Assembly: GCA_029204225.1 (NCBI GenBank) | Contig: MU832164.1 | Coordinates: forward strand, 19,964 to 83,963 | Origin: Diphasiastrum complanatum | Lineage: Eukaryota > Streptophyta > Lycopodiopsida > Lycopodiales > Lycopodiaceae | DNA: 64,000 nt | Direction of reading: 5' to 3' | Made by a program: the position numbers and the translations under genes | Part shown: positions 38,069 through 62,360 of the stretch, piece by piece | How the letters are laid out: each line of letters opens with the position of its first letter | Numbering within the stretch: the first letter of the stretch is position 1 | Notes under the pieces: generated by a model | The model's database searches: none | What the model saw: only the letters and a program-made list of their open reading frames with translations | What the model was told of the DNA's origin: nothing

Positions 38069-38192
38069 GTACTAGCTAGAAAATCGGTATGTCTTTTGTG
38101 GTAGTATTTTCATTTAATTTCGATGGAGCAATATTGGTTGATAAAGATGAAAATGCGATACATACCACTGGAATCGTGATTCTCCGTCCATT

Positions 38193-41100
38193 TTGTGTTG
38201 TTACAACTGCAAGAATCATTCCATCAACAAGCATGGATCAACAGGTCGATTTACCTTGACCACCTCTAGTGAGGATGAGAATGTTGCTCACATTACATGG
38301 ACAAATGTGGATAAAACTCATGTTATTCAGCCTGCGATATCGATTTTAAAATTGTTCAAAATGTTGTCTGTATCAAGCAAGTTGCGAAAGATCGTCAAAG
38401 TTTGTGGAGCTCCTAGAGAAGTGAAGGAAATGCCCAAAGAATACAATGGAGATCAGCTATTTGAGTTTCCACCATCACACATGACAAGCATGGAGGGCAT
38501 GCAAAGAGCATTTGACTGTCACAACTGGATTCGCTACACAACCTCCACAATGCAAGGATTTCCAGGGGTGGTTCGTTTATCTATGTGTGGTGGCGCATTT
38601 GAGTGTCGTAATATCAATTGCAGTTATTTGTTGTCGTTCCGGAAGAACAATTCCAAACACTTCTCTGGAAGATTGCTGACTAGGTGTCCAATAGGACTAG
38701 TTTCAAGTGGCGTTGGTAGCATGAAATGTCACCATTGTAATCATACACCCTACTGTGCAAGGCATTGTACAGGTAGGATTTATTATTGTATTCCAAATGA
38801 CACAATACACTAGAATGGTCATACACTTGGGTTTCCATGATCATGAGTTTGGTGTTGGAGATTCATATGTCAACATGGAGAAAGCACAAGATCTGGTGAT
38901 GAAGAAGGCCTCTCAGAACATTATGCATAAACCAAAGAGAATTCAAAAGGATTTGGCCAAAGAGTTGATTTCAGATCACTTGCTGGCAACATCATCGACA
39001 TCTCCTATAGATTCTACAAGGCTAGATGAATTGTTGTCTTTGATTGAACCCACTACAAAAAATCGAAGGTATGGGCATGCATAAATCTCTAACATGTCAT
39101 TTGGGCTTGAAATATCTATATATCTTTAATTTTTCTGATGGCTAATTATTGCAGACTGAAAAAATGGATAACATTGGCAAGAAAAGAATTGCAGCATGTC
39201 GATCTATCCCATGAAATAACTTCATTTTTATATTTAAAAGAACATTGTACATATCAGTTCTTTCATGGATCGTTGTTCCCTGGACAGTTGCATGACAAAA
39301 TAGATAGATGTCATATTTTCAAGATGTCAACTACTGGACCAACGTCAGGAGTGGAACTTGTACAAAGAATGCAACCAGGGAATGATCTAGCAAGATTTTG
39401 GTGTTTTTTTGATCATGTACACCGAATTAAAGATTGGGTCACAATGGCTACCCATGTATATGACATACAATATGAATTTCTACATTTCTTGCTTTTCAAT
39501 ATTATAGCAACTAAGTAGCTTATCCATTGTGCACTTTGTTTTCCAGAAACCAATCCATTCAAACTATTGCAATATGTGATATGATGGTTGAAGATGTTCA
39601 AGCACAAGTGCTATTTTGGGAGTTGTTGAATCGCGTTATGTCTGGCCATTTGTGTGATCCAGTCACATTTCGAGGATTTATGACAGATGAGGCACAAGCA
39701 AATTGGAATGCTGTGCACATTGTTTATGGAAATGATGCTAACACACCGATGATTGGAAAAGAAAGATCGTGTTTGTTTCATTTTATGGATAGTGTGAATA
39801 AACACACTACAAAGTACATAAAGCCATTGTTTAGAGATGATCATCTCGCTTTGTGCTTGCAGTGGCGAGATGCAACAGATCTTGATGCTGCAAATGCGAT
39901 TTATAATAAAATTACTGCATGTGGAAAATAGGCAATGCATACGAGAACTGCCTGAATGAATTGGAGAGCTGGCTTGCTTGGTGGAAAAATCGAATTCATA
40001 GATGGAAAAAATTTGTTGTCACGATATACTTTACATGTTGTTGTATTTTTTGGTGCAATTTGTTGCAGTAGAATTGGATTCCTATGATATGTGTAACTAA
40101 CAATTCTATATGCCACAGATGATGGATCATGGTGATGAGGCAGAGTTGCCAACGACAAATCTGTCTGAGGTGGTCCATAGTGTTTGGCAAAGAGTGGACA
40201 ACTACAATTCTAAACTAACAATTTATGAAGCTGCAGTGGGAGATTTGGCTAATGCAATATTGCAGAGTGCACGAGAGAAATCTTTCTTGTCTAGCCAATA
40301 CATTGGTCAAGGTCCGACATTTCAAAATCTGTTGGAGAGAGTGCGCTCGGGAAGGAGATCTTCAATTGTGGGTGCTTCTTTCTCTGAAAGAGTTAATGAG
40401 TTTGTTGAGCAGATTGACTTGACCAGGCAAGACCAAGATGTTAATGCACCAATTCAAATTGTCAGACGCAAAAGACCAGCACACCAATGGAATGTTGAAA
40501 ATGAGAACGTGTCTCATTGTCCAGATATAGAATACGTGCAAAAGGTTTCTCGAAAAAACAAATCCAATCTTCCAGATTGCAATCAATTAGGATTTTCAAA
40601 TACACCTCCAAACATGACAGGCCAAGCTAGTCTACAACTTTGCGAAGATATACGAGAAAGACAACTAAACAACAGCTGGTGGGCTATTCGTTGTCTAAGA
40701 ACCGGTAGTCAAGTGTCAAGGTATGAAGGCTGCCGGCAGAGGACTTGCAACAAGTTGATCAAATCAAGAATGGCACCTAGTTTTTTGGGAGGAGAAAACA
40801 TCAAAATGGATACACAAATCAATTCATGTGGTTTTGTGCTAGTGATATAACTTGTACTTGGAAAGCCAATCCCAATGTCACTATGTCACCTACAGAGAAC
40901 AACAATATTTGGTACGTGCAACAGGGAACAAGCTTTACGCAATCTGAAGTGGATGAATTGAACCAAGGGGGCTATATTCTAGAGACAACTAGTTCATGCT
41001 CCCACAATATTTCACAGCAAAAAAATACGATTGGAGAACCTCATGTAGCTTCCAATGTGGGTAGTGCCAGTGCTAATATGAACTTCACCACCAATCCAAC

Positions 41101-41488
41101 ATCAGAACGTGGAAATATGAGACAAAGATCAGGTGTGTCAAAATCTGCTAAAGATAGAATGAAAAGGGGATTGTCATTGAAAGGGCATGTACAAGAGATA
41201 ATCAAAATCCCTTCAGAACAAAAGGAGTTATATATCATTGAGGGTTTTGAAAGTAGTAAAACATGTGCAATTTACGAGGTCACAATTTCAAATGAGCCAT
41301 CATGCACATGTGCAGATTTCTCTAGAAATATGTCCATGAAAAAGTACATACCTTGCAAGCATATGTATTTTGTCTACTTACATGTCAAGGGGCTGGATGT
41401 CAATGAAAATATGTTCATACATCAACCCATCATTAGCTTGCAAGATCTTTTTCATATATTCGCTTTGCCCTCGAAGGGTTTGTCTTAG
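38193..41488 (+). pseudogene. MULE-type transposase with SWIM zinc finger, multi-exon, probably broken
   Basis: Segments in order: a Cys/His-rich N-terminus (38193-38813; CHHCNHTPYCARHC, then IHLGFHDHEFGVGD after a frame change near 38800), a helical part (to 39068), and a likely 86-bp intron (39069-39154, GT..TTGCAG). The transposase core follows (DVQAQVLFWELLNRVMSG, GFMTDEAQANWNAVHIVYG, LESWLAWWKNRIHRWKKFV), another likely intron ending in CACAG near 40109, and a C-terminal exon. The last part (40826-41488) has a SWIM zinc finger: CTCADF and CKHMYFVY, spacing CxC..CxH, as in MULE/FAR1-like transposases. At least three frame changes (near 38800, 39930, 40790) suggest decay. No terminal inverted repeats were identified. 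A domesticated relative cannot be excluded. Confidence 0.75.
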
Positions 41489-42670: not shown

Positions 42671-44718
<2,048 letters not shown>

Positions 44719-49047: not shown

Positions 49048-49389
49048 TCATTCAGTAACTATTGCAAGTTTATCCATCTTCACAATATCTGTATTATCCC
49101 ACAACATCCTATTTGGCATCACATGTATAGGGTTATCATATATGTCTTGAAGATGCTCAAGGTCCCCATGAAGGTATGGTAGGGGACAATCCATCTTTAA
49201 TACCTTGGAGATAGCGACCATGCCTTTATCCATTTCAATTGCTGGGGAAAAACATTTTTGACTGGGCTCAATGTTAATGACATGACCAAATGCAACTACC
49301 TCTTTATGAAAGAATAGAGCAACTTGAACATGTTCTTGTAGGTTGTCCATAAAAATGATCTTCCTAAAAATATGAAAGAACCACATCAT
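49048..49389 (-). CDS. unrecognised 113-residue frame, possible upstream exon
   Basis: The frame VALFFHKEVVAFGHVINIEP, then LPYLHGDLEHLQDIYDNPIH and HVMPNRMLW, has a protein-like composition. It faintly recalls the DUF8039-like tails of plant transposon ORFs (an aGrv...lp.p....l.da....i.WP pattern). It lies 0.6 kb upstream of the DUF7869-like gene on the same strand. Function unknown. Confidence 0.4.
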   Translation of the reverse strand: MMWFFHIFRKIIFMDNLQEHVQVALFFHKEVVAFGHVINIEPSQKCFSPAIEMDKGMVAISKVLKMDCPLPYLHGDLEHLQDIYDNPIHVMPNRMLWDNTDIVKMDKLAIVTE

Positions 49390-49439
49390 TCTTATTCTAT
49401 GATAAAATAGAGTAATTACAATAATATATTTGTCAAAAG

Positions 49440-51463
<2,024 letters not shown>

Positions 51464-51465
51464 GA

Positions 51466-52285
51466 TGTTAGCAATTGTACAAACACACTCAGTGAAAAAT
51501 ATAAAAAATAAAATAAAACTCTGTGGCATGTGTTTTGTAAGCCCACGTATGAGTAATTGCCAATAAACTTCTACTATGGCATGTGTTTTGTAAGTCCATG
51601 AGTAAAAGCTTAAACTTAGGATTAGAACTTAGACTTAAGAAACTTAAGATTAGAAAGATTCTAAATTATCTTAGGTCCCAAGTTAGAAACTTTTATAATT
51701 CTAAGCTCTAAGTTAGAAGTTTTTTAGAGGCCTTAAAATGGCTAGCTTAGAACTAATCCCATAAGCTAGTGGATGCTTATGGAAGGCCCTCCTTGCTATA
51801 AGAGGAGAGGTATTTCTCACGTACACAACACTTTTGAGATTATGCTAAATTGCTCTCTATTTGGAGATATCTTGCTATTTCACTTGTATTCCCATTGGAA
51901 GGTGCATAGCTTGAGGGAAGGTGCTTGGGCCTCCTCTTGTCTCCTTTCATTGGTTTTTATTGTGGCGTGTCTTATTTGTGTTATGCTTAGTTTAGCCACA
52001 ATTTATATTTCCATTTCCCTTTGGAAGTCAGAATTAGTTTTACGGTTTGCTAGTTGGGAAGCCTTAGCAAAGTTAGTTTAGTGTTGATCCTTGCTAGTTG
52101 GGTACCACCTTAGCCACACCATTTTTATTCCAAGCGCCAATTGGGAAGCCTTGGTGCTCCTTGTTTGTTTAATTTCCATTTGAAAGCTTTTAGGTAGATT
52201 CTTAAAAAGTGGACGATCCTCTCCAACACTATACTACATTTGTGAGTAGATCTAGCCACCACTTAGAATAGATTTACTTCCAACA
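51466..52285 (+). repeat. 5' LTR of G2
   Basis: 820 bp from TGTTAGCAATTG to CTTCCAACA, collinear with 57519-58228 for the first 0.6 kb. In reverse complement it is related to the G1 LTRs. The left flank is the end of a GA array. Confidence 0.92.
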
Positions 52286-61199: not shown

Positions 61200-61490
61200 G
61201 CAAGAATGTTTCCATGTGAATGTAAAAGAGAACTACGGGGGGATATTTGGAATGGAACTGCAAGGAAGAATGTTTGACATGCCCATGAAGAATGTTTCCA
61301 TGTGAATGTTCAAGAGAACTATCGGATTTCACTGCTGATATTTTCCAATTTATGTCCAGAGCTCTTGGTATTTGTAATGGAGCTACAAATAGAGCTACAA
61401 GGCGTTCAGATTGAATAGAGCTAGCTCTTTGGTATTTGTAATGGAGCTACAAATAGAGCTACAAGGCGTTCAGATTGAATAGAGCTACAA
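61200..61490 (+). repeat. two local tandem duplications
   Basis: GAATGTTTCCATGTGAATGT plus AGAGAACTA occurs at about 61206 and 61290. A unit of about 62 bp (TTGGTATTTGTAATGGAGCT, then ACAAGGCGTTCAGATTGAAT) is repeated at 61366 and 61428, followed by a partial third unit at 61481. It lies directly left of the TRIM. Confidence 0.9.
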
Positions 61491-61523
61491 GGCGTTTCAT
61501 AATCAATCTGACAACTGTTAGAA

Positions 61524-61545
61524 ATCCATAAATCATAATATGGAT
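61524..61545. repeat. hairpin next to the tRNA-like 3' end
   Basis: ATCCATA, eight bases, TATGGAT: a perfect 7-bp stem placed right after the tRNA-like acceptor stem on the minus strand. In the right LTR the stem has one mismatch. Confidence 0.8.
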
Positions 61546-61617
61546 GGACAGACTAGGATTCGAACCCAGGACCTCCCTCATACCGGATGGGATGCTCTAC
61601 CACTGAGCTATCCACCC
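61545..61617 (-). tRNA. tRNA-like sequence in TRIM LTR, better preserved copy
   Basis: Minus strand: acceptor GGGTGGA pairs with TCTGTCC (seven pairs, three of them G-T). Then TA, a D arm GCTC-AGTGGTA-GAGC with four pairs, an anticodon-arm region starting TCCCATCCGGTATGAGG, and a T arm CTGGG-TTCGAAT-CCTAG with five pairs. The A box TAGCTCAGTGG and B box GGTTCGAATCC fit the RNA polymerase III consensus. The anticodon arm is imperfect (one mismatch and one extra base), so identity is unclear (CGG or CCG readings). No TTTT terminator follows inside the LTR. It may act as an internal promoter rather than as a working tRNA gene. Confidence 0.8.
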
Positions 61618-61660
61618 TGTTTGATAGTTCTCTCTAGAGTGTGGGATTGATATTCCAACA

Positions 61661-61667
61661 CCCCCGC
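61661..61667 (-). promoter_or_regulatory. TRIM polypurine tract
   Basis: Minus strand GCGGGGG directly before the LTR TGTTGGAATA. Confidence 0.75.
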
Positions 61668-61763
61668 TGAAGCCACACTGGTTGGGGTCCTAGTTGTCAC
61701 CTGCCCCACAGACTTGGGCCACCTAACCATGGCTTTGAGACCATGAACTGTTAGGTCTAACTT

Positions 61764-61776
61764 GGCTCTGATACCA
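61764..61776 (-). promoter_or_regulatory. TRIM primer binding site
   Basis: Minus strand TGGTATCAGAGCC directly after the LTR end, a 13-base match to the plant initiator Met tRNA 3' end. Confidence 0.9.
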
Positions 61777-61913
61777 TGTTAGAAATTCATAAATCATAAT
61801 ATGGATGGACAGACTAGGATTCGAACCAGACCTCCCTCATACCGGATGGGATGCTCTAGCCATTGAGATATCCGCCATGTTTGATAGTTCTCTCTAGAGT
61901 GTGGATTGGAATA
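61777..61913 (-). repeat. TRIM 5' LTR (right copy), cut by family-E insertion
   Basis: It matches the left LTR up to GATTGGAATA, where the expected TTCCAACA end is missing. TGTAGGAAAG of the family-E LTR follows at once. Confidence 0.88.
61806..61877 (-). pseudogene. tRNA-like sequence in TRIM LTR, decayed copy
   Basis: Same position as 61545-61617. The B box GGTTCGAATCC is kept. The A box is damaged (ATATCTCAATGG), the first acceptor pair is lost and two bases are missing before the B box. Confidence 0.8.
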
Positions 61914-62360
61914 TGTAGGAAAGTCAAGTCACCAAGATCTAGTTGTCAATCAATTTCTACAGAAAACAAGAGAGAAGAGACTTGGGCGCCCAACTCTAAG
62001 AGAGAGAAAAAAAACAGCAACAAGAGCAATGGAGAGCAATGCTTAGCCAAACTGTCAAAATGGAATACACAATGAGCATCTAAGTACCCTACCTGGATGT
62101 GACCAAATGCCACCAAACCCTAAGGTTAACCACTTACTAAATGTAGGGCACCCCAAAACTCAAGATAGGGCCCCTAAACAAAATTAGGACCGCCTAGGAC
62201 CCACGAGTCAGTACATGACCAAAATTGGGTTCCAACTGAACTTAAGACAAACTTAAGATGGCCTAAATAACTAAATACCCATGGGTTACACAAATCTCGA
62301 CCTTTTGGGTCAAGAGTGTAACCTATGGATTAACTTTAGCATAGTCATTTATTTCTAACA
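61914..62360 (-). repeat. 3' LTR of a second family-E copia element
   Basis: 447 bp, TGTAGGAAAG to TTTCTAACA, collinear with 5264-5714. It is followed by CCCTCCTTAAAGTG, a polypurine complement. It lies inside the TRIM right LTR. Confidence 0.92.

What the first reader, a model, noticed from the sequence alone, without database searches (positions are those of the whole stretch)
61516..61913. TRIM element carrying a tRNA-like gene in both LTRs
Direct repeats, primer site, polypurine tract and a 116-bp interior define a TRIM. Each LTR holds a tRNA-like sequence on the element's sense strand. In the left copy, A and B boxes fit the pol III consensus and the acceptor, D and T arms pair. Cassandra TRIMs carry a 5S rRNA gene in the LTR in the same way; I do not know of a described family with a tRNA in this place. 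It could let pol III transcribe the LTR. The element is also only about 400 bp.
Basis: partly seen in the sequence, partly recalled or inferred. Interest (0 to 1): 0.88.

Follow-up and report, generated by a model that had tools for sequence, protein, structure and literature searches.

The report
tRNA-bearing miniature retrotransposon (Helenus type)
The finding is real: a tiny, protein-less jumping element carries a tRNA-like promoter in both of its ends and seems to spread by borrowing the machinery of larger Copia retrotransposons; this kind of element was first described in 2024, but here the genome also keeps hybrids that point to its carriers.

Summary
Confirmed, but of a known kind. Window 61516-61908 (sense = minus strand) is a worn TRIM copy: 145-bp 3' LTR, 116-bp interior, PBS TGGTATCAGAGC, short G-rich PPT. 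The 3' LTR's tRNA-like block scores 47.7 bits. The 5' LTR's block is decayed and abuts a Copia-type LTR, so this copy shows no TSD. Own genome: 1193 first-look candidates, 40 scored. Of 41 single units with intact ends and distinct flanks, 31 have perfect 5-bp TSDs. Rfam finds the tRNA in 84 of 86 LTRs in 40 loci. It fits Helenus (Kojima 2024), whose only listed plant is Selaginella. New here: a second tRNA-bearing TRIM whose LTR resembles the first clearly only in the tRNA block (57 of 73 positions), and nine distinct TRIM-Copia hybrids among 40 LTR matches, seven joined at an LTR/PBS border, four with perfect TSDs. They suggest TRIM and Copia cDNAs meet in one particle. Pol III transcription is inferred, not shown; within the young family the tRNA block is not more conserved than its flanks.

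The parts
61777..61908 (-). 5' LTR of the TRIM, first ~11 bp missing, decayed tRNA-like block
   Evidence: 92.6% over 135 bp to the other LTR; no Rfam match at E<=1
61661..61776 (-). Interior, 116 bp; PBS TGGTATCAGAGCC at 61776-61764, G-rich tract at 61661-61667
   Evidence: Sequence; the same 116-bp interior at fixed place in the fetched copies
61516..61660 (-). 3' LTR of the TRIM, 145 bp, TGTTGG...CTAACA
61545..61617 (-). tRNA-like block with A and B boxes; CAA at 61621-61623, just upstream
   Evidence: Rfam RF00005 47.7 bits; ARAGORN
61914..62360 (-). Copia-type LTR (relative of LTR-A of L081) that abuts the TRIM's broken 5' end
   Evidence: 91.4% match at 61922-62360; 61914-61921 by eye

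Best explanation
A non-autonomous miniature LTR retrotransposon of the Helenus kind. Shown: LTRs with a tRNA-like block at a fixed place, PBS, PPT, 5-bp target duplications, many young copies, tandem arrays, and integrated hybrids with Copia elements. Inferred: Pol III, recruited by the A and B boxes, starts a few bases before the tRNA block and reads through the element; the RNA enters Copia particles, is primed by initiator tRNA-Met, reverse transcribed and integrated by Copia enzymes. The block acts as promoter, not as a working tRNA. When TRIM and Copia cDNAs share a particle, the second (plus-strand) transfer at the PBS sometimes joins one element's LTR to the other's interior, which leaves the hybrids.
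For: 1193 first-look candidates, 40 scored, 46 matches. 31 of 41 deduplicated single units with intact ends have perfect 5-bp TSDs, 5 more have one mismatch. tRNA block in 84 of 86 LTRs, 31-53 bits. CAA 4-6 bases before the block in 56 of 56 LTRs. Between two TRIM families the block is 57 of 73 identical, flanks within the range of shuffles. Nine distinct hybrids with Copia among the 40 LTR matches; seven have an LTR/PBS border joint; L086, L083, L080 and L078 have perfect TSDs around the hybrid, and L086 and L083 have 144 of 144 identical outer LTRs. The Copia parts match Copia gag, integrase and related Pfam families.
Against: No transcript data. Within the family the tRNA block is not less variable than its flanks; 134 of 143 circular shifts were as low or lower. 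Lack of TTTT is uninformative: 73.6% of shuffles lack it too. Folding of the block is not stronger than shuffles. Hybrids were seen among the LTR matches closest to the window's LTR, not in a random sample. The second Copia family (L080) was not seen with its own LTR.
Confidence: 0.72

Rival explanations
1. The TRIM is transcribed by Pol II like other TRIMs; the tRNA-like block is an old SINE or tRNA remnant without a role.
For: No extra conservation of the block within the family; no terminator signal test in favour of Pol III.
Against: Block kept in 84 of 86 LTRs, and between two families it is the part that is clearly alike, above all around the A box. Only about 36 bp of LTR lie before the CAA, little room for a Pol II promoter (inference).
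Confidence: 0.2
2. The hybrids come from nested insertion, later DNA recombination or assembly error, not from co-packaged cDNAs.
For: The window copy itself abuts a Copia LTR with a broken end; L079 has an inverted, complex layout; the three L081-type matches are duplicates of one insertion.
Against: L086, L083, L080 and L078 have perfect TSDs around the whole hybrid and TRIM LTRs at both outer ends, with a TRIM LTR joined to a Copia PBS and no Copia LTR between. Nesting alone does not give that.
Confidence: 0.2
3. Chance tRNA pseudogenes in tandem, not an element.
For: A tRNA match by itself is common in genomes (general knowledge).
Against: The repeats extend beyond the tRNA, carry PBS and PPT, and form a family with TSDs.
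Confidence: 0.01

Closest known systems
Helenus TRIMs (Kojima 2024, PMC10886601)
   Same: TRIM with a tRNA-like sequence in each LTR, PBS, PPT, 5-bp TSDs as in fungi and plants; A/B-box region kept; 404 bp lies in the reported 311-1263 bp range; Copia as likely carrier, as in fungi
   Different: The paper's only plant is Selaginella moellendorffii (LTR 120 bp, interior 85 bp). In the parts read it reports no TRIM-autonomous hybrids; here they are integrated. PBS is at the 3' end of the primer tRNA, unlike most fungal Helenus
Cassandra TRIMs (PMC7215508, passages)
   Same: TRIM with a Pol III-type gene in the LTR, PBS TGGTATCAGAGC, tandem arrays
   Different: Carries 5S rRNA, not tRNA; terminators in the LTR, whereas none of 28 copies here has TTTT
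Template-switched complex LTR retrotransposons in Triticeae (Sabot and Schulman 2007, PMC1950507, outline and abstract)
   Same: Two parent elements fused during reverse transcription, then inserted
   Different: Here one parent is a tRNA-bearing TRIM and most joints lie at the LTR/PBS border

Membership tests
Helenus | tRNA-like sequence inside both LTRs of a TRIM | tested here: met
   84 of 86 LTRs in 40 loci; the window's own 5' LTR is one of the two misses
Helenus | PBS and PPT at the ends of a short interior without genes | tested here: met
   116-bp interior, PBS TGGTATCAGAGC, G-rich tract; pairing to initiator tRNA-Met is recalled
Helenus | 5-bp TSD (plants and fungi) | tested here: met
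   31 of 41 perfect, 5 with one mismatch, 5 without; not readable at the window copy
Helenus | A and B boxes kept, tRNA unlikely to work | tested here: met
   Boxes by eye; poor anticodon arm in the folds. Isotype models (tRNAscan-SE) were not run
Helenus | No complementarity of the tRNA-like block to the PBS | tested here: inconclusive
   By eye only: the block's 3' end does not pair with the PBS
TRIMp3 (TRIMs with a Pol III promoter) | Transcription by Pol III | not testable with these tools
   No transcript data
Cassandra | 5S rRNA sequence in the LTR | tested here: not met
   Only tRNA matches at gathering threshold in the window and in 80 scanned loci

The most novel reading that the evidence does not exclude
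This genome holds a clan of tRNA-bearing TRIMs that Pol III transcribes and that more than one Copia family carries; the PBS-joined hybrids are frozen intermolecular plus-strand transfers that record co-packaging, and some put coding Copia sequence behind a tRNA-type promoter.
Probability: 0.35. Interest if true: 0.65.

Novelty: new member of a known kind. Interest (0 to 1): 0.5.

Why it matters
In the paper that defined it, Helenus had one plant host, and its carriers were inferred from PBS and interior similarity. A young, abundant family, a second related TRIM in the same genome and integrated TRIM-Copia hybrids point to the carriers and make Pol III use directly testable. It is also a caution that LTRs can inflate tRNA gene counts.

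Tried and rejected
Chance tRNA match: rejected (and the family). Tandem tRNA pseudogenes: rejected, the repeats extend beyond the tRNA and have PBS and TSDs. Block more conserved than flanks within the family: tested, not met; the 116 LTRs were best matches to the query and had to align near both LTR ends, so power is low. TTTT depletion: uninformative. Folding energy: not exceptional (z -0.53 and -0.96). Viral contigs: an exact 25-base LTR pattern gave 0 matches; one scan only. Not testable because the genome search did not complete: true copy number, the parent tRNA or SINE, copies of the second TRIM family, host species. That the host is a plant rests on element types and recall; no call establishes it. 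That such elements are not reported from other plants rests on the listings of searches (30 of 44 papers listed; 3 of 3; 20 of 81; 20 of 222; 11 of 11), and on Gao 2016 (PMC4717578, passages), where 'tRNA' occurs 0 times in the main text. One search found no paper. Searches were on template switching and plant tRNA promoters.

Full report
What is there. In sense order (minus strand) the window carries a damaged 5' LTR (61908-61777), the PBS TGGTATCAGAGCC, a 116-bp interior, a short G-rich tract and a complete 145-bp 3' LTR (61660-61516). The 3' LTR holds a tRNA-like block of 47.7 bits. The block of the 5' LTR is decayed and not found at E<=1. Upstream the element abuts a Copia-type LTR (match 62360-61922), so no target duplication can be read here. 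Two further places, on C672 and C3, share the broken end and both flanks and are duplicates of this locus.

It is a family. The window's genome (1.74 Gb, unnamed) gives 46 matches to the whole element; 1193 first-look candidates, 40 scored, so counts are lower bounds. I fetched 40 loci, three of which are the window locus and its two duplicates. Of 32 with complete ends, 25 have a perfect 5-bp target duplication, 4 have one mismatch and 3 have none; some of the 32 are duplicates of each other. With more loci and duplicate flanks removed, 31 of 41 single units are perfect, 5 have one mismatch and 5 have none. Left out there: 18 chains not bounded by LTRs, 16 with damaged ends, 9 duplicate flanks and 1 at an edge. 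At least one of the five without duplication is a piece of hybrid L078. Tandem arrays occur: L026 has five LTRs and four interiors with a perfect duplication, L036 three LTRs likewise. L075 is a solo LTR with a perfect duplication. LTR pairs of 28 complete single copies are on average 98.1% identical. They are best matches, which favours young copies.

The tRNA block. Rfam finds it in 84 of the 86 LTRs of the 40 loci, 31-53 bits; the misses are the window's 5' LTR and one LTR of L036. ARAGORN reads tRNA-Thr(GGT) in the window. In the folds the D and T arms form in both copies tested, the acceptor arm in one of the two, and the anticodon arm is poor. A CAA stands 4-6 bases before the block in 56 of 56 LTRs, inside the -1 to -10 range reported as functional for plant tRNA genes in PMC11700998 (passages). 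The same passages say that only 36-45% of tRNA genes of basal angiosperms and dicots have CAA within 10 bases. The A- and B-box consensus is recalled. None of 28 copies has TTTT on the sense strand, but 73.6% of shuffled units lack it too.

Conservation, for and against. In 116 LTRs, changes other than C>T/G>A run at 0.0044 per base in the block and 0.0041 and 0.0039 in the flanks. C>T/G>A changes run at 0.0246 per G or C in the block against 0.0017 and 0.0074, which looks like decay of methylated cytosine (inference). Without this split the block is the more variable part. A second TRIM was met by chance in L067 (LTR 506-658, interior 659-715, second LTR from 716; PBS TGGTACCAGAGC; LTRs 97% over 148 bp; the right end lacks the last LTR bases, so no TSD). 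Its tRNA blocks score 51.9 and 53.0 bits. Between the two families the block is identical at 57 of 73 positions (0.78; 40 shuffles: mean 0.30, maximum 0.44), the 5' flank at 0.40 (mean 0.30, maximum 0.45) and the 3' flank at 0.48 (mean 0.35, maximum 0.50). A local alignment also shows a shared ACACTCTAG stretch upstream. Two families are few, one of them seen once, and a shared tRNA source would give a similar picture.

Hybrids with Copia. All 40 matches of the LTR-only search (the best 40 of 1066 candidates) were laid out and scanned for Copia pieces. Twelve of the 40 lie in nine distinct TRIM-Copia hybrids: L086 (two matches), L081 (three matches, duplicates of one insertion; L084 and L085 lack part of the Copia 5' half), and one each in L083, L080, L079, L078, L064, L053 and L093. 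Copia-A is defined by L081: 444-bp LTRs, 98% alike, unlike the TRIM LTR. TRIM LTR joined exactly to a Copia PBS and leader: L086, L083, L080, L079, L078. Copia-A-type LTR joined to the TRIM interior at the PBS: L086, L064, L053. L086 is 5335 bp: TRIM LTR, Copia-A interior (frames broken), Copia-A-type LTR, TRIM interior, TRIM LTR, with the duplication GATAC and outer LTRs identical at 144 of 144; both joints lie in the shared stretch ACATGGTATCAGAGC, one base of which differs in the 5' joint. L083: TRIM LTR, Copia-A leader and part of gag, then TRIM interior, LTR, interior, LTR; duplication TAGAT, outer LTRs 144 of 144. L080: the same plan with a different Copia gag; duplication CTCTG, LTRs 136 of 144. 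L078: TRIM unit, Copia-A leader and part of gag, then an array of five LTRs; duplication GTGCT around the whole. L081 is a Copia-A element with a TRIM piece between gag and integrase parts. L063 and L088 have foreign sequence before the TRIM interior that I could not assign. The PBS serves the second strand transfer (described in outline in PMC10886601, and recalled), so joints at the LTR/PBS border are what intermolecular plus-strand transfer between co-packaged cDNAs would leave. That reading is inference; DNA recombination is not excluded for each case.

Compared with the known. Kojima 2024 (PMC10886601; text parts 1-4 of 6 and figures-and-tables section) defined Helenus: TRIMs with a tRNA-like sequence in the LTR, PBS, PPT, and 5-bp duplications in fungi and plants; it proposed the name TRIMp3 for TRIMs with a Pol III promoter and lists one plant, Selaginella moellendorffii. 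The present family meets the structural definition. A 2026 meeting report mentions Helenus without new hosts in the passages seen. Cassandra is excluded by the lack of 5S in the scans done. In the listings of searches I saw no report from another plant.

Verdict. The added value is an abundant young family, a second tRNA-bearing TRIM in the same genome, and integrated hybrids that point to Copia as carrier. Pol III transcription is likely but unproven.

Noticed in passing
L067:506-863: A second, distinct TRIM with a tRNA-like block in its LTR (LTR about 153 bp, interior about 57 bp); only one copy seen because the genome search did not complete.
   Followed up: partly
L079 (C6:14175700-14185650): Copia-A interior behind a TRIM LTR, with inverted TRIM pieces on both sides and a short palindromic stretch of the Copia-A LTR; perhaps an aberrant integration product.
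   Followed up: partly
TRIM LTRs, tRNA block (116 LTRs): C>T and G>A changes are concentrated in the tRNA block, often at CG or CHG sites, which suggests that copies are methylated there.
   Followed up: partly
window 61500-61515 and 61937-61950: The bases on either side of the TRIM and its damaged end look like an inverted repeat (AATCAATCTGACAAC / GTTGTCAATCAATT); seen by eye.
   Followed up: no
window 61365-61487: A 59-bp exact direct repeat, 64 bp apart, lies just beside the TRIM.
   Followed up: no
window 43337-43755 and 49048-51570: Long GA/CT tracts, visible as RERERE/SLSLSL frames.
   Followed up: no
window 38151-41488: Frames that look like a Mutator-type transposase with a SWIM-like zinc finger (by eye, no family search).
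   Followed up: no
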